Below are positions 1 to 38,074 of a stretch of 38,074 nucleotides of DNA, piece by piece (the stretch's first letter is position 1; every line of letters starts with the position of its first letter). The notes under the pieces were generated by a model. The model did not search any database. It saw nothing but the letters and a program-made list of their open reading frames with translations, and was not told the origin of the DNA. The DNA is from a virus: the IMG/VR virus record IMGVR_UViG_3300042922_000487, positions 1 to 38,074 of that record; one strand, given 5' to 3'. A program made the translations under genes and the position numbers.

Positions 1-269
1 GCAGCAACATCGCCCGTGTCACCGAAGACGTAGTTGACCTCACAGGTCACAGTCGTCTTACCGGGACGCTGAAGAACCTGCTTCAGCGTCAGTCGCGGGT
101 CGTCAACGACAGCCTGCGTTTCCGTCAGGTTGAACGTCTTCAGCGAGTAGGTGAGGTCATCACCAGTTGTGATGTCCGCCACCGAAAGCGGGTTGTCCGC
201 CTCCGCGACGAACGCGATACGCAGGTTGTCGTCCCAGTTCACTGACTGGGGAACGGCCTCAGCAACCAT
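1..269 (-). CDS. Major tail (tube) protein, N-terminal part, cut by window edge
   Basis: Reading leftward from ATG at 269 the frame stays open to the edge (89 codons visible). The N-terminus (AEAVPQSVNWDDNLRIAFV) and the following beta-rich, Asp/Thr-rich stretch fit a siphovirus tail-tube subunit, which polymerises into the tail tube. The call rests mainly on position: it follows the tail terminator and precedes (across the missing part) the tape measure whose end lies at the other edge. Its start overlaps the stop of the upstream 55-aa gene by one base (TGATG), with GGAG upstream. The C-terminus is missing, so no domain can be confirmed. Confidence 0.6.
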   Translation of the reverse strand, partial: MVAEAVPQSVNWDDNLRIAFVAEADNPLSVADITTGDDLTYSLKTFNLTETQAVVDDPRLTLKQVLQRPGKTTVTCEVNYVFGDTGDVA

Positions 270-436
270 CAGTTCTCCATTTCGTTGTCGCCCGTGGGCG
301 GCTCAATGGACACGGGTGTGTCCGGGGTCTCCGCCACGGGGCGGAAGTGTTCGGCGAGCTGCGGCCAGCGCTGCCAGTGCGCGACAGTCACGGTCACGCG
401 GTCGCCGCGCTCGTCCTCAAGTTCGATAAGGTCCAC
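269..436 (-). CDS. Small conserved-type protein (55 aa) between tail terminator and tail tube
   Basis: GTG start at 436 preceded by AGGGGG at a good distance; 55 codons ending in TGA that overlaps the tail-tube start. The protein is acidic with the stretch HWQRWPQLAEHFRPV, resembling the short proteins often found beside head/tail genes in actinophages (including the 49-aa product at 2204-2353). Function unknown; the position suggests a structural accessory. It could also be only a translational lead-in for the tube gene. Confidence 0.6.
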   Translation of the reverse strand: MDLIELEDERGDRVTVTVAHWQRWPQLAEHFRPVAETPDTPVSIEPPTGDNEMEN

Positions 437-459
437 GCCGGGTCCCCCTTAAATGCGAA

Positions 460-480
460 AGCCCCGCACAGGGCGGGGCT
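460..480 (-). terminator. Hairpin terminator between tail terminator gene and tail genes
   Basis: Perfect 8-bp stem AGCCCCGC/GCGGGGCT with a 5-nt loop. On the minus strand it is followed by TTTCGC, so it looks like a leftward, possibly weak, terminator or mRNA-processing hairpin placed directly upstream of the GTG start at 436. Confidence 0.6.
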
Positions 481-499
481 TGTGTGACTGGGTCAGAGG

Positions 500-922
500 T
501 CAGGCGGGACGAGCGGTCCACTCGACGGACAGGTCCGCGTAGTACAGGAACGGCTTCACCGACGTATCAGGCAGCACACGGCCAGCCGAACCGAGGGATA
601 CCCGGGCAGGCTGCCGACCAACAATGGTCAGACCGTGACCGATGAGTTGCGTGGTGACGCGGCCCATCATCACCCGCACCGTCGCCGCCGTCGTTCCAAC
701 CACTCGAACGTCGGACTCAAACACGACCGGCCCCGCAAACGACGGCACCAACGTGACCCGGTCCTGCGGAACCTCCAACGGAACCGGGGCGTACAAGATC
801 ACATAGTTGTCGCGGATAAGCACACCGCTCGAGTCGAGACGCACAGTGTCATACACGCGCCCCGCGAGACCCTGGCCGAGCTCGATCTGCGTCTTCAGAG
901 CCGTGTAATACTCGTCGATCAC
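500..922 (-). CDS. Tail terminator / tail completion protein
   Basis: 140 aa. N-terminal helix (MIDEYYTALKTQIELGQGL) followed by alternating beta strands, ending in a strand with YYADLSVEWTARP, the general plan of siphovirus tail-terminator proteins that cap the tail tube at the neck. It sits after the gp10-like neck protein and before the tail tube, exactly where this gene is expected. No catalytic residues. The call is by position and fold-like pattern, not by a diagnostic motif. Confidence 0.6.
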   Translation of the reverse strand: MIDEYYTALKTQIELGQGLAGRVYDTVRLDSSGVLIRDNYVILYAPVPLEVPQDRVTLVPSFAGPVVFESDVRVVGTTAATVRVMMGRVTTQLIGHGLTIVGRQPARVSLGSAGRVLPDTSVKPFLYYADLSVEWTARPA

Positions 923-13331: not shown

Positions 13332-13946
13332 TCAGATGAGGGTTGGTGCGTTGACTTGGCGAAGCCAGCCGAGCACCTTGGGTAGGTTTTGGTCGGGGCC
13401 GAATACGAGGAACGTGCCGTCTGCGGAGTCGCATCCAATACCGTTCGCGTATCTCATGCGGGAGGCTGAGTTGACGCGTCCCATGTGGACCCGCTTGCCC
13501 CGCTCTTTTGCTTCCGCGGTCAGATCACGAGCGTGACGCCCAAGCTTCCATTCGGTTGTTCCGCCGAGGAATAGGATGTCGAACTCGCCCCACGGCACAC
13601 CGACGAACTCGGCACCGTCCTGCGCGACGAATGCTGCCGGGTATCCAAGTTCCCGAATCTTCGGGAGCCACGGAGTCGACCGGGCTAGGGTTCCCGCGGC
13701 GTCTGCGACCACGTCCGGAGCTGTTGCGAACAGGCACCGCGACCGTTGCTCCGGCGTGAAGGTGTCTAGCCATGCGAGCCACGCGTCTTCGCCTGGGAAT
13801 CCCTTACCGAAGCATCCGTTATCGGCGCACCATGCGGCACCCTCGGGGATCGAGTTGCCCTGCATGGGCGTGTTGATCATCCCGAGGGTGCCGTTGGTCA
13901 TGGCTTCACGGATTCGTGCTGTGGACGGGTTTCCGAAGTACAACAC
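13332..13946 (-). CDS. dpdA: DpdA-like 7-deazaguanine (TGT-family) DNA transglycosylase
   Basis: 204 aa. Motifs match the tRNA-guanine transglycosylase fold used by phage DpdA: CADNGCFGKG (D42, in place of DSGGFQ), FATAPDVV (residues 73-80), GGTTEWKLG (128-136, like the GG-x5-E strand) and HMGRVNS...YANGIGCDSADG (D173 as likely nucleophile). Phage DpdA enzymes exchange guanine in DNA for preQ0-type bases, which protects it from restriction. It is shorter than tRNA-acting TGT, and its neighbour is a queuosine-precursor-type transporter. Acting on tRNA instead is an alternative. Confidence 0.7.
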   Translation of the reverse strand: MLYFGNPSTARIREAMTNGTLGMINTPMQGNSIPEGAAWCADNGCFGKGFPGEDAWLAWLDTFTPEQRSRCLFATAPDVVADAAGTLARSTPWLPKIRELGYPAAFVAQDGAEFVGVPWGEFDILFLGGTTEWKLGRHARDLTAEAKERGKRVHMGRVNSASRMRYANGIGCDSADGTFLVFGPDQNLPKVLGWLRQVNAPTLI

Positions 13947-14472
13947 GGGACACCGCCCATCCGATGAGAAGGAACGCGAGCATGGCCCACACCTTGCCGA
14001 CGAGTTGTCCGGGCAGCGCGGGAAGGATGGCAGCAGGACCGAATGCGATTCCGAGGAACAGGACCGTGTCGACCACGGCCCCTACGACGGTGGAAGCGGC
14101 TACCGCGATAGCCCACTTGCGGTCACCGAACCGTGACCGTTTCCGAATGGGCGTGTACACGCCGTAGTCAGCGAGCTCAGAAACGAGGAACGCGACCGCC
14201 GATGCGATTGCGATGAACGGTGCAGACATCGCAAACGAGAGGATCGCCCCCGCCAGGATCGCGCCGACCACCACCCACCTTCCGAGGGTGTCCTGCACCG
14301 CGTCTCTGAGTGCGAGCGTCGCTCCTGCTACGAGCGTTCCCGCGGTCGCTGTCAGCCCGAATCCGACAGGGATGAATCCCATGTGGGTGGTGAGGACGTT
14401 CGCGAGAACGACCGTTGAAATGAAAACGGCCACCAGAATCCATCCGGTGACCTGTCGTGCTGTCTTGTTCAC
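13906..14472 (-). CDS. VUT/YhhQ-family queuosine-precursor transporter
   Basis: 188 aa with about six hydrophobic spans. GWILVAVFISTVVLANVLTT opens helix 1; LALRDAVQDTLGR is the conserved loop; SELADYGVYTPIRKRS and the late segment VVGAVVDTVLFLGIAF are family hallmarks. YhhQ proteins import preQ0/preQ1 across the cell membrane. It overlaps the DpdA-like gene by 41 bp, so the two are probably co-translated: import of the base, then insertion into phage DNA. No preQ0 synthesis genes are seen in the window. Confidence 0.82.
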   Translation of the reverse strand: MNKTARQVTGWILVAVFISTVVLANVLTTHMGFIPVGFGLTATAGTLVAGATLALRDAVQDTLGRWVVVGAILAGAILSFAMSAPFIAIASAVAFLVSELADYGVYTPIRKRSRFGDRKWAIAVAASTVVGAVVDTVLFLGIAFGPAAILPALPGQLVGKVWAMLAFLLIGWAVSRVVLRKPVHSTNP

Positions 14473-23339: not shown

Positions 23340-23364
23340 CTCGGCACCTCCGAGAGCAATGGGG

Positions 23365-23401
23365 AGGGCCGGTCATCGGGGAGAGTGAGATGACCGGCCC
23401 T
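23365..23401 (-). terminator. Perfect 12-bp hairpin upstream of a membrane-protein gene
   Basis: AGGGCCGGTCAT/ATGACCGGCCCT, 13-nt loop, lying between the HNH gene end (23417) and the next start (23339). Little T-run follows on either strand, so it may be an mRNA processing or transcription-pausing hairpin. Confidence 0.45.
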
Positions 23402-23416
23402 CTAGGGGGTGTTCAG

Positions 23417-27567: not shown

Positions 27568-27737
27568 GCATCATCGTGGACCCGTCCGACTCCAACTACG
27601 CGATAGCTGACGGCAAGCTCGCGGTCGCAGTACGCGCCGTCGAGGTGGCGAACTGGGAGGCTCCCACTGTGGCCGAGCTCGCGGGCGGAAAGATCATCGG
27701 CTACTCCACCGACGGATTCGGCCCGGTCAATGCCTAA
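27564..27737 (+). CDS. Small protein upstream of integrase (57 aa)
   Basis: ATG 27564 overlaps the previous stop; the last eight bases overlap int. MSIIVDPSDSNYAIADGKLA, VAVRAVEVANWEAPTVAELA, GGKIIGYSTDGFGPVNA. Compact acidic protein; perhaps a cofactor that controls int translation by coupling. Confidence 0.6.
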   Translation: MSIIVDPSDSNYAIADGKLAVAVRAVEVANWEAPTVAELAGGKIIGYSTDGFGPVNA

Positions 27738-28923
27738 GCCGTCTCCGCGGAAGAACAAGGATGGTTCGGTTTCGTGGCGGGTGCAGTTCCGCATCGGGGA
27801 CAAGGTCGTTCAGGAGACGTTCGAGACGGAGAAGGGTGCCGCGGAGTTCGCGCGTCTCGTGGAGACTGCTGGCGGGAAGGCTGCCCGGGATGTCCTCGCG
27901 CGACGCCGTCAGGGCGAATCTGAGGCGGTAACGCTACGGTCCTGGACCGCGCACTACCTGGACCCTTCCAGCGGCCTCCTGACAGGCATTGAGCCTGGCA
28001 CCCGGAAAGGGTACGAGCGCGCTGCCGAGTCCAGCTTCCTCCGCATCCTCGGCGACTACCCGGTGGACGCGATCCAGAAAGCAGATGTCGGCCGGTGGTT
28101 GGCATGGCAGGAGCAGCAACCGTCCGCGCGGTCCAAGGGGCAACTGATCGCGGCGAAGACGGTTCGCAACTACCACGGCATCCTGTCGTCCGTGTTGGCG
28201 TCGGCAGTGACGGAGAAGATTCGTTCCGACAACCCCGCCCACCGGACTCGTCTCACCAAGGGCGTCAAGCGGGAGTCGGTGTTCCTGTCCCCTGACGAGT
28301 TCACCACACTCCTCTACTTCACCCCCCAGCACTATGAAGGCCTCGTGTTGTTCCTCGCGTCCACAGGAGCACGGTGGGGTGAAGCCACCGCCGTCAAATG
28401 GGGTGACGTGAACTCGAGAGCCATCCCCGCCACGGTACGGATCGACGAGGCGTGGAAGAAGTCCGAGACCAGCGTCCCCGTGTTGAAGCAACCCAAGACA
28501 GCAAGGGGACGAAGGACGATCAGCATCCCACCCGACACTCTCGCGGCGATGGGGGAACGGCGCGGCCCTGACGAGCTCGTGTTCACCACGCGGGTCCAGC
28601 AGCGGAGAGTCCGCTACCACACGTTCCGTGACCGGGTGTGGGCTCCTGCCGTGCTGCAAGCCATGGATAAGGCGGTCTGCGAGGAAGCCGGTCTGGTTCC
28701 CCTGACCCGCCGCCCCACCATGCACGATCTCCGACACAGTCACGCCTCATGGCTGATCGCAGCCGGAACACCACTCCCCTACGTTCAAGCCCGACTCGGC
28801 CATGAATCCATCCAAACCACCGTGAACGTCTACGGTCACCTCGTCCCCGAAGCGCACATACAGATGGCCGACGTCATCGGCGGAACCCTCGCGGGCGCGC
28901 GAACCCTCAAACAACTCACTTGA
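27730..28923 (+). CDS. int: Tyrosine integrase
   Basis: 397 aa. N-terminal arm-binding domain (about 1-65, KDGSVSWRVQFRIGDKVVQE), core-binding SAM-like domain (about 70-175), catalytic domain with R215 (STGARWGEAT), Lys near 254-257, H332-x2-R335 (MHDLRHSHASW), H358 (RLGHES) and the nucleophile Y368 (VNVYGHL). All active-site residues are present. It integrates phage DNA at the tRNA-like att site upstream. Translation overlaps the 57-aa gene by eight bases. Confidence 0.95.
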   Translation: MPKPSPRKNKDGSVSWRVQFRIGDKVVQETFETEKGAAEFARLVETAGGKAARDVLARRRQGESEAVTLRSWTAHYLDPSSGLLTGIEPGTRKGYERAAESSFLRILGDYPVDAIQKADVGRWLAWQEQQPSARSKGQLIAAKTVRNYHGILSSVLASAVTEKIRSDNPAHRTRLTKGVKRESVFLSPDEFTTLLYFTPQHYEGLVLFLASTGARWGEATAVKWGDVNSRAIPATVRIDEAWKKSETSVPVLKQPKTARGRRTISIPPDTLAAMGERRGPDELVFTTRVQQRRVRYHTFRDRVWAPAVLQAMDKAVCEEAGLVPLTRRPTMHDLRHSHASWLIAAGTPLPYVQARLGHESIQTTVNVYGHLVPEAHIQMADVIGGTLAGARTLKQLT

Positions 28924-29077: not shown

Positions 29078-29239
29078 CGTCGTTCCGTCGACACACCCGA
29101 AGGCTACGCCGGCTGGTATGCGGTCGCGGTTCCCTGTGGCTACTTTCACCTACCGTTCCCCGTGATTCTGCGGGCCGGTAGCGGGAAGTAGTCACAAGTA
29201 GTCCCCGAAAATAGCCACTAAACCGCCACGCACGACAAA

Positions 29240-29278
29240 GACGCCCCGCGCCCACCCGAAGGTGAGACGCGGGGCGTC
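29240..29278 (-). terminator. Terminator of the late leftward transcript
   Basis: GACGCCCCGCG/CGCGGGGCGTC, perfect 11-bp stem (29240-29250 and 29268-29278); on the minus strand it is followed by TTTGTC. Lies downstream of the polymerase gene in the leftward direction. Confidence 0.7.
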
Positions 29279-29321: not shown

Positions 29322-29489
29322 ATGAATGACCCGGCACCCATCGACCGCCTCGCGCGCCGCGCCGAGGATGCGGGCGGATCGCGGGCGGTTCTGCGAGCCC
29401 TGGTCGCGCCGGGGCTGTTCATCGGAGCGACACTCTTCCTCTACCTCACTCCGGCAGGAAACGCTCTCTGGCGATGGCTCTCAGGCTGA
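29322..29489 (+). CDS. Small membrane protein convergent with polymerase gene (55 aa)
   Basis: ATG 29322 with AGGAT upstream. N-terminal charged helix (DPAPIDRLARRAEDAGGSRA) then one hydrophobic span (LVAPGLFIGATLFLYLTPAG) and a Trp-rich end (NALWRWLSG). Its stop lies two bases from the stop of the polymerase gene. Sits near int, where lysogenic-conversion or exclusion genes are often found. No known family. Confidence 0.55.
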   Translation: MNDPAPIDRLARRAEDAGGSRAVLRALVAPGLFIGATLFLYLTPAGNALWRWLSG

Positions 29490-29491
29490 CG

Positions 29492-30589
29492 CTACATCTC
29501 GATTGACGTCCTGTACGGTAGCAGTCCGCCGAAAAACTGTAGGTAGAACGCGAAGTACACTGTCGAAGCCGCCACAAGGGCGAACGAGAGCGTCTTACTG
29601 TTCTCTCGCTTGGCGAGCAGGTTTGGTAGCAGGAGTATGGCGAAGATCCCGAAGTAGTAGTAGATCCGGCCGACAACGACTGCCTGTGTGCCGACGATCA
29701 GGAGAGCTGCGGCTAGGGTCAGCATCGCGAGCCAATCCGGGTGCGACTGGCCCGCTCCGAGCCACATCGCTAGCCACAGCAGCATGATCAGCGCCACCAC
29801 GTTGAGGTAGGTTCCAACCCCAGAAACCTGCTGGTTGGATAGGTAGGTCTCGTAACGTTCGTTCAGCGACACTGCGAACTGCTGGATAGACGGCAGTGTG
29901 AGCAGGGCGCCGGCGGCGGCGACCGAACCGGCAAGCGCTACCACCACGGACAACTTCGTAGGACGCCATAGCCGGGCGACGATCATGAGGATGGCTGCGA
30001 TCAGTGCGGACACGTGGAACGTCGAGGCGAGAAGCGCGAGCGCAGCGAATATCACCCATCCGCCCTTCCTGCCCAGGAAGCTGTAAGCCCAGAAGGTGAG
30101 CGATACAGCGATGCCCTGCCGGATCAGGTTGAATGGCGCGACGTAGAACGCCAGGAGGACATACAGGGCGACGGCCAGTGCGACGTTGGTGGACTTCTTC
30201 TTGATGACGGCGTAGACCGGCACGACCGTGATCACGGCGGTGACCCACAGCAGCGCTAACGGATCTGCAACGACTGACCGCACTAGCAGTGAGAGCGTTG
30301 TGTACCCAACCTCCTGCGACGATGTGGCTATCTGCGCTCCCCATTCGGCCGCGGGATCAAGCGCGGCGAACATTCTGGCGTACATCGGGAAGTCCGTGCC
30401 AACCTCGAAACGCAGGGCCGAAAACGCAACCAGCACCGCGACTGCGGCGAAGTCAAACGGTGTCCACAGCAGTCGTCGCGGGCGTGCCTGGCCGTCGAGG
30501 ATGCGCCTCGAGCCGTACTTCCGGACGACCAGACTGCTGACGGCAGCTAGCGTTATCGCCGCAGTAGCGACGGCGAAGTACGCAAGCAT
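29492..30589 (-). CDS. EpsG/Wzy-like polysaccharide polymerase
   Basis: 365 aa with about ten hydrophobic spans. Hallmarks of EpsG: an early loop FSALRFEVGTDFPMYARMFA, a central APFNLIRQGIAVSLTFWAYS and ASTFHVSALIAAIL. These proteins sit in the membrane and join sugar repeat units of exopolysaccharide or wall glycan. A phage copy beside int, behind the tailspike, fits a lysogenic-conversion gene that alters the cell surface, as Wzy of Pseudomonas phage D3 does. Its RBS is in a hairpin (30594-30628). A hydrolase-inhibitor role, as some phage polymerase blockers have, would need a much shorter protein. Confidence 0.82.
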   Translation of the reverse strand: MLAYFAVATAAITLAAVSSLVVRKYGSRRILDGQARPRRLLWTPFDFAAVAVLVAFSALRFEVGTDFPMYARMFAALDPAAEWGAQIATSSQEVGYTTLSLLVRSVVADPLALLWVTAVITVVPVYAVIKKKSTNVALAVALYVLLAFYVAPFNLIRQGIAVSLTFWAYSFLGRKGGWVIFAALALLASTFHVSALIAAILMIVARLWRPTKLSVVVALAGSVAAAGALLTLPSIQQFAVSLNERYETYLSNQQVSGVGTYLNVVALIMLLWLAMWLGAGQSHPDWLAMLTLAAALLIVGTQAVVVGRIYYYFGIFAILLLPNLLAKRENSKTLSFALVAASTVYFAFYLQFFGGLLPYRTSIEM

Positions 30590-30593
30590 TCGA

Positions 30594-30628
30594 CCCCCTA
30601 TCGGATGCCGAGCCTATCCGATAGGGGG
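30594..30628 (-). promoter_or_regulatory. 12-bp perfect hairpin that contains the polymerase RBS
   Basis: CCCCCTATCGGA/TCCGATAGGGGG with an 11-nt loop. On the minus strand the 3' arm ends in TAGGGGG, four bases before the ATG at 30589, so the SD is fully paired. Position between tailspike stop (30641) and polymerase start. As a terminator it lacks a T-run. Confidence 0.7.
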
Positions 30629-30640
30629 CCGCGGGACCGG

Positions 30641-32248
30641 TTACACCCATGCCGCTCCGCTCCACGTCTTGAGGACACCACCGATGGAAAGCCGCGAACC
30701 CGTCTTCGCAGATGCCGGCTCCGCCCCGCTCGCAACATCCTCAGTCGGCTGGTCGATGAACAGTTTCGCAGCGTAGGTTCCGATGCTGCTCCCGTTCCCC
30801 GCATCAGCGCTGCTACCACCGATGGCCCCGAAGAAGCTGGACCAGTTGGCATCCTTTCGGGTGACCTTGTTCCCAGATACCTCCGTGAACGAGTCGGCGT
30901 GCGTGTTGGTCGTCGGGATGCCGATCGCGTACTTGCAGCCCGATATGCGGTTCCCCGCCACGGTCAGCTGGGAACGACCCGACGTTCCTCCGCCGATCTG
31001 GCTAACCCCGTAGCGACACGTCCCTCCACCATCGATGACGTTGTTCGCGACCACGCCCGTCTCACACCAGATGCCCCGAGAAGTTCCATCCACACCTGTG
31101 ATCTTCACGGTGTTGCCGACAACGGCGCTCTCAAATGCCCCGCTGTCAACGTTCGCGACGCTGATCCCGTCGACGCTCGTGATCTTGTTTCCCGTGATCG
31201 TCGCATAGCTGGAGTTGAACTCTATGAATATGCCCTGCTGGTTCGAGTTGGTCGTCCCGCTGTTATTGGCCACGACAAGGTTGTCAGCCCGGTTTCCGCG
31301 AATGAACGCCCAAGCGACGTTGAGGATCGTATTGCCCCGTACAATCACGTTGCCGACTCGATAGATGAGGATGCCGTTACCGTACTGGCCAGTGCCAGCG
31401 AAGGCGTCAGTGATATTGCGGATGCGGTTGCCCTCTACGACCGTCAGCACGCCGTCATACTTGGTGGTGCTCGCCGACGACCCGATGCGGATGCCGTTTC
31501 GGGTGCAGTTCTCAATCAGATTGTTTAGTATCTCGGTCGGGTAGTTTGCATGCGGAGTCACACCCTCAAGCACGCAGTCGTGGATCCAAGATTGTGAGAG
31601 CTCAATCGCCGAGTTGTAAGCAACGATGCCTGACTGGGTGGCGTTCTTGACCTCGACTCGCTGTACGACGGTGGCGCCGTTGTTCCGCGAGTCCAGTTTG
31701 AGAATCGAGGTCAGAACGTCCGAGCTCATGGCGACGTTGTTGCCGTCCAAGGTCAGGTCGGTAACCATAACGCGGTGCGACGTCCCGGACGCGATCCGCA
31801 GAAGGTGACCCGGGGAAGCGGAACTTGCCAACCGGATGATTGTGCGCCCCATGCCCGACCCGCGAATCTTGAGCGCGGCAGTCGGAGTGATCGAGATGGG
31901 ACCAGTGACGATTGTTCCCGGAGGCAGAACGAGTTCTTTGCCAGCCGACATCGCTGCTGCTACAGCACTAGTCAAGCCCGAGGTGTTGTCCGTCACGCCG
32001 TCTGCGACCACGTATTTGCTGCCCGCAATCTCCGGGACGCCCGACTCAATGGTGGCCGTTAGTGCGGCTCCTGTTGCTGTCCCGGAGTCTCCTACGAGTG
32101 CTGCGGTGTCGTCGTCGAGATCAGCAGCAACCTGTGCCGCGTCCGCCGTGGCCGCTGCGGCGAAGATCCCGTTCTCAATGTGTGTGAGTCCGGTCGCGTT
32201 GATGTGCGGCGGTGCACCGTTGTTCCACGTCTGCTTCGTGTACGCCAT
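30641..32248 (-). CDS. Tailspike / beta-helix receptor-binding protein
   Basis: 535 aa from ATG 32248 (GGGAGGG upstream). N-terminus AYTKQTWNNGAPPHINATGL then HIENGI is the usual virion-attachment head of actinophage tail fibres. From about residue 75 the pectate-lyase-like opening DNTSGLTSAVAAAMSAGKEL and GTIVTGPISI leads into repeated N-x-I ... G-I ... V-x-G-N coils up to about residue 450, typical of a right-handed beta-helix. The end (GGVLKTWSGAAWV) is a short cap. It probably binds or cuts surface polysaccharide. Unusually, it lies after the lysis genes. Confidence 0.82.
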   Translation of the reverse strand: MAYTKQTWNNGAPPHINATGLTHIENGIFAAAATADAAQVAADLDDDTAALVGDSGTATGAALTATIESGVPEIAGSKYVVADGVTDNTSGLTSAVAAAMSAGKELVLPPGTIVTGPISITPTAALKIRGSGMGRTIIRLASSASPGHLLRIASGTSHRVMVTDLTLDGNNVAMSSDVLTSILKLDSRNNGATVVQRVEVKNATQSGIVAYNSAIELSQSWIHDCVLEGVTPHANYPTEILNNLIENCTRNGIRIGSSASTTKYDGVLTVVEGNRIRNITDAFAGTGQYGNGILIYRVGNVIVRGNTILNVAWAFIRGNRADNLVVANNSGTTNSNQQGIFIEFNSSYATITGNKITSVDGISVANVDSGAFESAVVGNTVKITGVDGTSRGIWCETGVVANNVIDGGGTCRYGVSQIGGGTSGRSQLTVAGNRISGCKYAIGIPTTNTHADSFTEVSGNKVTRKDANWSSFFGAIGGSSADAGNGSSIGTYAAKLFIDQPTEDVASGAEPASAKTGSRLSIGGVLKTWSGAAWV

Positions 32249-32272: not shown

Positions 32273-32292
32273 GCCACCCGGTAAGGGGTGGC
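32273..32292 (-). terminator. Strong terminator between lysis genes and tailspike
   Basis: GCCACCC/GGGTGGC stem, 6-nt loop; on the minus strand followed by TTTTTGTTTGC. It would separate the tailspike and polymerase genes from the lysis transcript. Confidence 0.75.
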
Positions 32293-32580: not shown

Positions 32581-32805
32581 TCAGAACGGCAGGAAAGCGC
32601 GGACCAACGCCGCACCAGCCGCGGTGGTGAGGATCCCGAACGCCACCCACTGCACAGCCACCTGAATCTCAAGCTTCCGCAAACGTGACCCCTGGTCCTT
32701 CACGATCTCCGGGACCGGGTCGACCTTCTTATCAACGTCGAGGAGCTTGTTGTAGATCACGTCGAGGGTGACCTTGACGTACGGCTGATCCTCAGGGGCC
32801 GTCAT
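32581..32805 (-). CDS. XhlA-type holin or holin partner (74 aa)
   Basis: ATG 32805 overlaps the endolysin stop by four bases. A charged helix that may form a coiled coil (LDVIYNKLLDVDKKVDPVPE, SRLRKLEIQVAVQ) precedes one C-terminal membrane span (WVAFGILTTAAGAALVRAFL). This is the layout of haemolysin-XhlA proteins that help release the endolysin. May act with the 59-aa protein. Confidence 0.72.
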   Translation of the reverse strand: MTAPEDQPYVKVTLDVIYNKLLDVDKKVDPVPEIVKDQGSRLRKLEIQVAVQWVAFGILTTAAGAALVRAFLPF

Positions 32806-33773
32806 CCCTCAACGCCCTCGATAGTCACCTTGAGATCAGCCAGAGCCTCCCGCGCACCGCGTTCCGCCGCCGCCTCAACGGCAGCCATGTCCAGAACTGC
32901 ACCGTTGGCCGCCGCGAGCTGCGCGACGACTTCCTGAATCGCGGCGATACCCGCCGACTGTTGCGCCGCCGCACGTCGCGTGCCCTCGTGCTCGGCGGGT
33001 TCGTACCGCAGGAAGTCTCTCGCTGGAACCATCGCCGCAGGGTTCAGCGGATGCTCCATTCGAAAGTCCCAAATCTCCTCCGCGATGGCCGACACGTCTG
33101 CTCCGGGGATCGCCCGCACAGCGTTGATCAGCTTGTCGAGCGTCCCGTATGTGTCGCGCACGAACGTGTCGAACGTCGTCACATCCCGACCAGGCACGCT
33201 GAACCGCACCCAGTCCCGGATGGTCGCTGCGACCTTGTCGGAGATCTTCTGGAGATCCGTGTCGTTCAGGGGCATGTCGTCCTCCTCGAAAGGGTTGGAG
33301 CCGGATCCAGCGGTTCCGCTGAGGTCTGCGTGAGCCATGAAATCGATCGTGTAAGGCTTCCCGTTCGGCTGGTATCCGAAGCGGGTTTGGTGCGTGGGCC
33401 ACAGGGTGCCGTGCACATGCGCACCGCCCGTGTTCGGATCAGCCGACCAATCGGCCTTGCCGTACCCGGTCGCCCCCGAATAAGCGATGATCTCCCCACG
33501 TCGCACGCGCCCTGACGTACGCACGAGACGTGAATAGTGCATGCCGCGGAACCGCATGCCGTTATCCAGATCGATCCCGTTCCACAGTCCCGTCGCCGGG
33601 GATATGCTCGTCCCGTACCCGTAAATCACACCGTCACCAGGAGCAAGCACAGGCGTCCCAATCGGGCAATACCAATCTGTCCCCGGTTCCGTGGACCGCG
33701 GGTTGCGTCGCTGGTGTGTAGCCCACGAACTCATCCGCCGTTGACCGACAGGAAGAAGAAGGTCTCCCATCAC
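32802..33773 (-). CDS. Endolysin, M23 (LytM-type) peptidase
   Basis: 323 aa. Peptidase domain about residues 1-140: RSTEPGTDWYCPIGTPVLAP with D33, and GGAHVHGTLW with the HxH pair H119/H121. The first zinc ligand, His in most M23 enzymes, appears to be Glu29 (EPGTD). It would cut peptide cross-links in the wall. After about residue 165 comes a long helical segment (DTDLQKISDKVAATIRDWVR, then AAAQQSAGIAAIQEVVAQLA) with no recognised wall-binding domain. Lies between minor tail and holin genes. Confidence 0.85.
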   Translation of the reverse strand: MMGDLLLPVGQRRMSSWATHQRRNPRSTEPGTDWYCPIGTPVLAPGDGVIYGYGTSISPATGLWNGIDLDNGMRFRGMHYSRLVRTSGRVRRGEIIAYSGATGYGKADWSADPNTGGAHVHGTLWPTHQTRFGYQPNGKPYTIDFMAHADLSGTAGSGSNPFEEDDMPLNDTDLQKISDKVAATIRDWVRFSVPGRDVTTFDTFVRDTYGTLDKLINAVRAIPGADVSAIAEEIWDFRMEHPLNPAAMVPARDFLRYEPAEHEGTRRAAAQQSAGIAAIQEVVAQLAAANGAVLDMAAVEAAAERGAREALADLKVTIEGVEG

Positions 33774-36708: not shown

Positions 36709-37545
36709 TCACGCCCCAGCAACACCGGCCAGGTCGTATCTGCGATTCACCGCAAGACGGGTGAGATTGTCGTTATTCAGTTCTTCACGCGACGCGTAAT
36801 ACGCGTTCAGATCCATCCGCCTGAGCAGCGGAATGAAGAGGCCGGGCGCTGGCGGTGCCGCCTCGTCGCCCTGCATCCGCTGTCGCGTCCAAGTTCCACC
36901 CCACCCGACGTCTATCCCCTCTTCGGCAATGTCGAAGACACCGAGGAAAAGCGGGGAGTGGACACGTAGGCCGACGTAGTCGAGGCCGAGCCGGATGCAT
37001 ATGACGGGCACCATCGCGTTTCCCTGCGTCCCAAGGAACGCCTGGATCTGGTCGGCGGTGTCGAGATCGTGGCAAGTCACGTCAAAGACGACGCCAGACA
37101 AACCGCGACGTGGCTGTGCGACCGCGATCCCAACTCGGCGCCCACGCGGATACACCACGGCACCGGGGACAGGTCGGGAGAGCACCGCCCCCGCAGTGTC
37201 CATCAGGTCCACCTTCACGGCCCCGCCAGGATTCAACGGGTTATGCATCCAACACCCCGAGAATCCGAGGGTGATTGTGACGGACTCGGAGAACCCCAAC
37301 GAAACCCCATCGTCGTCGAAATACTCGACCCGATAGGTGGCCTGCTGTGCTGGGACCTCGAAATCGATCCACGTACCGGCCCCAGCCACCGCAGCATCGA
37401 TGATCCCACGCACCTGCAACTCGAACCCATTCGAGAGCCGGTACGCCGTCACCGACGCCACGGCAGCGTCAAGGTCCGTCAGCAGCACCTCAACCTTGGG
37501 TGGGTCGGCGGGACCGGCGGTGAGGTCGTTGATTGCCAGCGTCAT
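36709..37545 (-). CDS. Distal tail-like minor tail protein (278 aa)
   Basis: ATG 37545 overlaps the tape-measure stop by four bases. Beta-sandwich N-terminus (PADPPKVEVLLTDLDAAVAS, FDDDGVSLGFSESVTITLGF) and a C-terminal half containing HDLDTADQIQAFLGTQGNAM and WTRQRMQGDEAAPPAP. In tailed actinophages the gene right after the tape measure is the distal tail protein that ends the tube. Confidence 0.72.
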   Translation of the reverse strand: MTLAINDLTAGPADPPKVEVLLTDLDAAVASVTAYRLSNGFELQVRGIIDAAVAGAGTWIDFEVPAQQATYRVEYFDDDGVSLGFSESVTITLGFSGCWMHNPLNPGGAVKVDLMDTAGAVLSRPVPGAVVYPRGRRVGIAVAQPRRGLSGVVFDVTCHDLDTADQIQAFLGTQGNAMVPVICIRLGLDYVGLRVHSPLFLGVFDIAEEGIDVGWGGTWTRQRMQGDEAAPPAPGLFIPLLRRMDLNAYYASREELNNDNLTRLAVNRRYDLAGVAGA

Positions 37546-38074
37546 ATTGTCTGGTTCCTCCCCCGCGCGATCCGCGTCTGTGACCTGTCGTGCTCGTTCA
37601 GGACACCCTTGACGAGACCGGTGAGCCCGTTCCCGAGGTCCAACGTCCCCGAAATGGACACGCCGTCCAGAGAGACAGGGCCAGCGGGTGCGGCTCCACT
37701 GTGGAGTCCGTTTCGGAACGCGTAGACAGCGTGTTGTCCGCCCATCGCTGCCACATCGCCCGCGTCCAGCACGTGCTCACCCGGAGACAACCGCCGCAAC
37801 ACCATGTCGTCGCGAGGCCCACCGGGACCGTAGATAGCGCCACCATCAGCGTTGCCGGGAATGTCGTTCATCGACGGGTTGCCGGTGATCGTGTCGATGC
37901 TGACCGTCTTCCGGGCCGGGATGCGGCTCAACGCAGCGCGAAGGTTCTCGATCTTCTGCTGGGCAGTCTCAACGCCGCTGACAGAGACGAACGTGTCAAT
38001 GTTCCCGGGGATCAACCCAAGGTCATCGGCGTAAGTCTCAGCCGCTTCACCCGTGATCCCGAACTGCCCCAGCA
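37542..38074 (-). CDS. Tape measure protein, C-terminal part, cut by window edge
   Basis: The frame is open to the edge; 176 codons are visible. Near the edge come helical segments (TAQQKIENLRAALSRIPARK), then the hallmark C-terminal module GGAIYGPGGPRDDMVLRRLS, PGEHVLDAGDVAAMGGQHAV, YAFRNGL. This 'SPGEHVLDAGDVAAMGG' end is typical of actinophage tape measures, which set tail length and are injected with the DNA. The N-terminal bulk lies outside the window. Confidence 0.88.
   Translation of the reverse strand, partial: LGQFGITGEAAETYADDLGLIPGNIDTFVSVSGVETAQQKIENLRAALSRIPARKTVSIDTITGNPSMNDIPGNADGGAIYGPGGPRDDMVLRRLSPGEHVLDAGDVAAMGGQHAVYAFRNGLHSGAAPAGPVSLDGVSISGTLDLGNGLTGLVKGVLNEHDRSQTRIARGRNQTI

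What the first reader, a model, noticed from the sequence alone, without database searches (positions are those of the whole stretch)
29492..32248. Tailspike and glycan polymerase form a receptor-binding plus receptor-changing pair
The beta-helix tailspike is out of place, after the lysis genes, and is followed by an EpsG/Wzy-like polymerase next to int. A strong terminator (32273-32292) cuts the pair off from the lysis transcript. Established: phage Wzy proteins such as that of D3 change O-antigen linkage and block reinfection. Inference: the lysogen remodels its surface glycan so the same tailspike no longer binds. A matched pair like this is not commonly described for actinophages.
Basis: partly seen in the sequence, partly recalled or inferred. 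Interest (0 to 1): 0.78.

Follow-up and report, generated by a model that had tools for sequence, protein, structure and literature searches.

The report
Phage cassette: tail tip plus surface-glycan editor
A virus of soil-type actinobacteria carries, side by side, the gene for the tail spike that recognises a sugar coat and a gene that can probably rewire such a sugar coat; related viruses swap this two-gene block as a unit, which suggests that they re-lock the cell they enter against their own kind, as recently proposed for viruses of Acinetobacter.

Summary
The genes are real. 29492-30589 (-) is an EpsG-type polysaccharide polymerase (Pfam EpsG, E 3e-46; all conserved family residues kept). 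30641-32248 (-) is a beta-helix tailspike (E 1e-11) with a widespread tail-attachment N-terminus. They lie between holin/endolysin and an attP-like region next to int. EpsG itself is absent from all 26 related virus records tested. However, the same slot, next to the terminal receptor-binding protein (RBP), repeatedly carries unrelated glycan enzymes (Wzy-like, acyltransferases, membrane-anchored SGNH esterases). In two pairs of near-identical phages (L032/L079, L041/L051) the RBP body and the enzyme are replaced together; a third pair (L065/L064) fits. So tip plus editor behaves as an exchange cassette. That the lysogen thereby escapes its own spike is inference; the same idea is already published for Acinetobacter prophages (PMC13228068). 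One RBP pair with different enzymes argues against strict one-to-one matching. New variant of a known kind: no report of such a cassette in actinophages was found.

The parts
29492..30589 (-). EpsG-family (Wzy-like) polysaccharide polymerase, 365 aa, 8 TM segments
   Evidence: Pfam PF14897 E 3.3e-46; conserved family residues G64, D66, Y70, Q158, F191, H192, P210, Y249, R308, Y312 kept
30641..32248 (-). Beta-helix tailspike, 535 aa; N-terminal anchor YTKQTW..L..THIE shared with RBPs of other phages
   Evidence: Pfam PF13229 E 1.4e-11; N-terminal anchor in 18 viral loci; 38% identity to L032 spike over residues 3-170
30591..30631 (-). Hairpin between spike stop and polymerase start (16-nt arms, 9-nt loop), covering the polymerase's likely Shine-Dalgarno site; no T-run
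32273..32292 (-). Terminator-like hairpin with T-run between holin and spike
   Evidence: fold z -1.5
29088..29229 (.). attP-like non-coding region, 77-84% identical in many relatives, between int and the cassette
29240..29278 (+). Strong hairpin after int (11 bp perfect stem, z -6.0), conserved in relatives; closes the cassette on the int side
29322..29489 (+). Possible small ORF (55 aa, one hydrophobic stretch), convergent with and 2 bp from the polymerase stop
   Evidence: sequence; no family match
27730..28923 (+). Tyrosine integrase
   Evidence: phrog_1 E 2.8e-68, Pfam PF00589
32309..32488 (-). Holin
   Evidence: phrog_6116 E 1.3e-9
32802..33773 (-). M23 endolysin
   Evidence: Pfam PF01551 E 4.6e-10

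Best explanation
The two genes form a receptor-reading plus receptor-editing cassette at the attP end of a temperate actinophage. The spike, made late and fixed to the virion by its N-terminal anchor, recognises and probably cuts a surface polysaccharide. The EpsG-type polymerase, made in the lysogen, joins the host's lipid-linked repeat units by its own linkage or competes with the host polymerase, so the coat of the lysogen differs from the coat the spike recognises. This lowers adsorption of the same phage to its lysogens and siblings. Shown: gene identities, layout, recurrence of RBP plus glycan enzyme at this slot, and joint replacement in relatives. Inferred: expression in the lysogen, change of linkage, loss of spike binding.
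For: Gene identities. Same slot filled by other glycan enzymes beside the terminal RBP: L032 (Wzy-like), L041 (weak Wzy_C), L065 (weak Wzy_C), L047 (Wzy_C 3.5e-9, overlapping a beta-helix spike and 5 kb from int), L030 (Wzy_C 6.6e-14 + Acyl_transf_3), L040 and L068 (Acyl_transf_3), L079 (HGSNAT/OpgC-like), L051, L080 and L116 (anchored SGNH); L057 (two Acyl_transf_3) is a near case. Block exchange: L032 and L079 have 100% identical holins, a 97% identical spike N-terminus and 92% identical sequence on the int side, but unrelated spike bodies and enzymes; L041 and L051 have 95% identical integrases and 91% identical lysins, but unrelated spike bodies and enzymes; L065 and L064 have 95% identical lysin DNA with a different fibre and enzyme present or absent. 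Enzyme presence goes with a post-lysis RBP: 11/23 against 2/22, Fisher p 0.007; within one close holin family 2/3 against 0/18, p 0.014. Experimental precedents: phage Wzy changes capsule linkage in Acinetobacter (PMC9241936, PMC13228068) and O antigen in Pseudomonas (PMC4815439).
Against: No direct evidence of expression or of adsorption loss. L065 and L068 have 48% identical RBPs but different enzymes (Wzy-like against acyltransferase), so pairing is not strict. Many phages with a post-lysis RBP have no enzyme (12 of 23). Membrane enzymes alone give only p 0.07, and no count is corrected for phylogeny. No sigma-70-like promoter was found near the polymerase, and it is co-directional with late genes, unlike most relatives, where the enzyme is on the int strand. 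EpsG is rare in actinobacteria (3/300 Microbacteriaceae, 5/396 across the phylum), so whether the host makes a suitable lipid-linked repeat unit is unknown.
Confidence: 0.55

Rival explanations
1. Positional cargo: the end of the prophage next to attP is a general landing site for lysogenic cargo genes, and the last late gene there happens to be the variable RBP. Adjacency and joint replacement then reflect one recombination hot spot, not function.
For: Most enzymes lie between attP/int and the end of the late operon; recombination in conserved flanks would exchange everything between them; L065 and L068 have similar RBPs with different enzymes.
Against: In L047 the polymerase sits between spike and endolysin, 5 kb from int, overlapping the spike's 3' end. 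The cargo is nearly always glycan chemistry rather than a random sample of cargo genes. Phages with a short holin-int interval carry none of these enzymes.
Confidence: 0.25
2. Shared host matching: spike and enzyme are inherited together because both must fit the same host repeat unit. The enzyme changes the lysogen's coat for other benefits (other phages, niche), without blocking the phage's own spike.
For: Block exchange and the loose fit of tip class to enzyme class (polymerase-only modules 0/5 esterase tips, acyl-type modules 5/7, post hoc p 0.027; one later case, L116, fits).
Against: Any linkage or acyl change in the spike's own substrate would be expected to affect that spike; phage surface-modifying enzymes with measured effects (D3, O-acetylases) do exclude relatives (reviewed in PMC13123978).
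Confidence: 0.15
3. Lytic role: the polymerase is made with the spike late in infection, changing the coat of the dying cell so that released virions are not trapped on debris.
For: Co-directional with the spike and other late genes in the window, L079 and L047.
Against: The hairpin between spike and polymerase covers the polymerase's ribosome-binding site; most relatives carry the enzyme on the opposite strand.
Confidence: 0.05

Closest known systems
Acinetobacter baumannii prophages with tailspike depolymerase (dpo) plus wzy (PMC13228068, PMC9241936)
   Same: Tail depolymerase and Wzy polymerase close together, in one prophage at the end away from int; shared sequence running from the C-terminal part of dpo into wzy, as in a moved block; the authors propose the same exclusion idea.
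   Different: Gram-negative capsule; measured change of linkage; no swapping series of other enzymes in the same slot described in the sections read.
Pseudomonas phage D3 and O16 prophage Wzy-beta (PMC4815439)
   Same: Phage-borne polymerase that changes the linkage of a surface polysaccharide in the lysogen.
   Different: D3 also carries an inhibitor of the host polymerase (own knowledge); no tailspike-adjacent cassette tested here.
Klebsiella prophage SGNH and beta-helix RBPs with prophage acetyltransferases (PMC13123978)
   Same: Same two tip classes (pectin-lyase-like and SGNH); acetyltransferases frequent in the same prophages.
   Different: Adjacency and joint exchange with the RBP not shown in the passages read; Gram-negative.
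EpsG of Bacillus subtilis and other Wzy-dependent exopolysaccharide clusters
   Same: Protein family (Pfam EpsG).
   Different: Host EPS-cluster gene; the window's is a single gene in a phage, about 22-29% identical to actinobacterial copies.

Membership tests
EpsG-family polysaccharide polymerase | Match to the Pfam EpsG profile over its length | tested here: met
   E 3.3e-46, profile 5-325 of 326
EpsG-family polysaccharide polymerase | Polytopic membrane protein with the family's conserved residues | tested here: met
   8 hydrophobic segments; conserved columns kept
EpsG-family polysaccharide polymerase | Polymerises lipid-linked repeat units | not testable with these tools
   needs biochemistry
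Beta-helix tailspike | Right-handed beta-helix domain | tested here: met
   Pfam Beta_helix E 1.4e-11; NCBIfam TIGR03808 E 1.8e-29 but below its cut-off
Beta-helix tailspike | Virion attachment N-terminus | tested here: met
   Anchor shared with proteins in 18 other viral loci and conserved while the body is exchanged; virion presence itself untested
Beta-helix tailspike | Predicted trimeric spike fold and active site | tested here: inconclusive
   Single-sequence AlphaFold model unusable, pLDDT 35
Dpo-wzy lysogenic conversion module (Acinetobacter type) | Tail depolymerase and Wzy-type polymerase adjacent in one prophage | tested here: met
   (depolymerase activity of the spike is inferred)
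Dpo-wzy lysogenic conversion module (Acinetobacter type) | Tip and polymerase transferred together | tested here: inconclusive
   Met for relatives L032/L079 and L041/L051; not observable for the EpsG pair itself, which has no close relative
Dpo-wzy lysogenic conversion module (Acinetobacter type) | Changed linkage in the lysogen's polysaccharide | not testable with these tools
   needs glycan structure of lysogen and cured strain

The most novel reading that the evidence does not exclude
Temperate actinophages carry exchangeable read-and-rewrite cassettes in which the chemistry of the tail tip (backbone-type beta-helix or GH43-like, against acyl esterase) is matched by that of the adjacent lysogenic enzyme (polymerase, against acyltransferase or anchored esterase), so that each receptor specificity travels with its own superinfection lock.
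Probability: 0.3. Interest if true: 0.82.

Novelty: new variant of a known kind. Interest (0 to 1): 0.6.

Why it matters
Receptor recognition and surface editing are usually studied apart. If they move as one cassette, the enzyme next to an RBP becomes a clue to what the RBP reads, prophages become predictors of surface glycan type in actinobacteria, where receptors are mostly unknown, and the evolution of homotypic superinfection exclusion by adsorption block can be tested with natural pairs such as L032/L079 and L041/L051.

Tried and rejected
Direct relatives of the EpsG protein in viral contigs: none; in 300 Microbacteriaceae by protein query: none; in GenBank phages: one weak hit, an unannotated gut phage (MT835960, Pfam EpsG E 1.8e-37). 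No DNA relative in GenBank phages. The tail-protein query gave no viral relatives. Structure prediction of the spike from a single sequence failed, so no fold search was run. First suspicion that the L030 Wzy_C/acyltransferase genes were host flank: rejected, because they lie between int and the phage's own fibre, holin and endolysin. Strict one-to-one pairing of tip and enzyme: rejected because of L065/L068. A promoter whose -10 lies in the hairpin loop, freeing the Shine-Dalgarno site, was considered; the match is too weak to claim.

Full report
What is in the window. The window is a virus record of 38,074 bases, apparently a circularly permuted temperate siphophage: terminase, portal, protease and capsid on the minus strand at 2.4-7.4 kb, replication and recombination genes in the middle, integrase at 27.7-28.9 kb on the plus strand, and a tape-measure end, tail, lysis, spike and polymerase running down the minus strand from 38.0 to 29.5 kb. 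The host is probably an actinobacterium of the Microbacteriaceae: relatives of the integrase lie in Cryobacterium and Microbacterium genomes and in Microbacterium phage Footloose.

The two genes. 29492-30589 (-) matches Pfam EpsG end to end (E 3.3e-46) and keeps the family's conserved residues. 30641-32248 (-) is a beta-helix protein whose N-terminus is a tail-attachment segment found in many otherwise unrelated phages. Base composition does not differ from the rest of the phage (60-61% against 62% G+C).

Transcription signals. The late spike must somehow be transcribed, so it cannot be a complete block. A stronger feature was missed: between the spike stop (30641) and the polymerase start (30589) lies an inverted repeat with 13 perfect base pairs, one of the two longest stems in the window, with at most 10 bp in simulations. 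It has no T-run. It either ends the late transcript (inference: actinobacterial terminators often lack T-runs, own knowledge) or hides the polymerase's ribosome-binding site. Both would keep the polymerase out of late expression. A further strong hairpin (29240-29278) and an attP-like region (29088-29229) conserved in many relatives (77-84% over most of it) lie on the integrase side, so in the prophage the pair would sit at the end away from int, as described for an Acinetobacter wzy2Ph prophage (PMC13228068).

Is it linked or random? EpsG itself is absent from all 26 related virus records and two host genomes tested and is rare in actinobacterial genomes. But the same slot recurs. From integrase-, endolysin- and holin-anchored scans, polytopic glycan enzymes were found beside the terminal RBP in L030, L032, L040, L041, L047, L065, L068 and L079, with L057 a near case, and membrane-anchored SGNH esterases beside the RBP in L051, L080 and L116 (families; SGNH motifs of L080 and L116 read from sequence). 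The L032 enzyme has no Pfam match above threshold; it is called Wzy-like because it is homologous to the L065 enzyme (31%, E 5e-21), which itself matches Wzy_C only weakly. The L041 spike has no Pfam match either; it was counted as a beta-helix from its sequence by eye.

Block exchange. L032 and L079 have identical holins, a 97% identical spike N-terminus and over 90% identical DNA on the integrase side, yet the spike bodies and enzymes between are unrelated. L041 and L051 are 91-94% identical on both sides; between them one has a spike plus Wzy-like polymerase, the other an RBP with two SGNH domains plus an anchored SGNH esterase. L065 and L064 have a 95% identical endolysin region and about 91% identical far flank with different fibres, one with and one without an enzyme. 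In L047 the polymerase overlaps the 3' end of a beta-helix spike upstream of the endolysin, 5 kb from int: there the link is to the spike, not to attP.

Limits. By hand classification of 45 contigs, enzymes go with a post-lysis RBP (11/23 against 2/22, Fisher p 0.007), but for membrane enzymes alone p is 0.07, and related contigs are not independent. Matching of tip class to enzyme class (polymerase-only modules 0/5 esterase tips, acyl-type modules 5/7; p 0.027) was seen after the fact; it was written down before two further scans, which gave only one new complete module, and it fits (L116). L065 and L068 have 48% identical RBPs with different enzymes, so exchange of the enzyme alone also happens.

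Mechanism. Best supported: a cassette that reads and rewrites the receptor. In Acinetobacter a phage-borne Wzy demonstrably changes the linkage between capsule units (PMC9241936), and prophages holding both a depolymerase and wzy have led to exactly this exclusion proposal (PMC13228068). Here the genetic coupling is shown; expression in the lysogen, altered linkage and loss of spike binding are inferred. Paper searches found no report of such a cassette in actinophages, but the library is incomplete. Verdict: real, interesting, a new variant of a known kind, not a new category.

Noticed in passing
window 13906-14472 (-): Phage-encoded member of the Vut_1 family (Pfam E 2e-13), related by family to queuosine-precursor transporters (own knowledge); it lies among replication genes.
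   Followed up: partly
window 23364-23402: Longest perfect hairpin of the window (14 bp stem, 11-nt loop), just downstream of an HNH endonuclease gene.
   Followed up: no
L051 3960-4868 and 4865-7840; L080 12450-14442; L116 11969-14174: Tail RBP with SGNH esterase domain and, convergent and touching or nearly so, a separate membrane-anchored SGNH protein: possibly a lysogen-made version of the tail's receptor-destroying chemistry.
   Followed up: partly
L030 5151-7836: Wzy_C polymerase plus acyltransferase in one phage, beside a fibre with a SASA acetylesterase domain and an arabinofuranosidase-like domain.
   Followed up: partly
window 29088-29229 and relatives L062, L063, L067, L071, L075, L076, L078, L081: The attP-like region is conserved even in phages whose neighbouring integrase is of another family; either the integrase was exchanged over a conserved site or the region has another role.
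   Followed up: partly
MT835960.1 (L036 4833-6842): Unannotated human-gut phage record with a 669-aa EpsG-family protein (Pfam E 1.8e-37).
   Followed up: no
window 1-500 and 37542-38074: The tape-measure gene is cut by the record ends; the contig looks circularly permuted with part of that gene missing.
   Followed up: no
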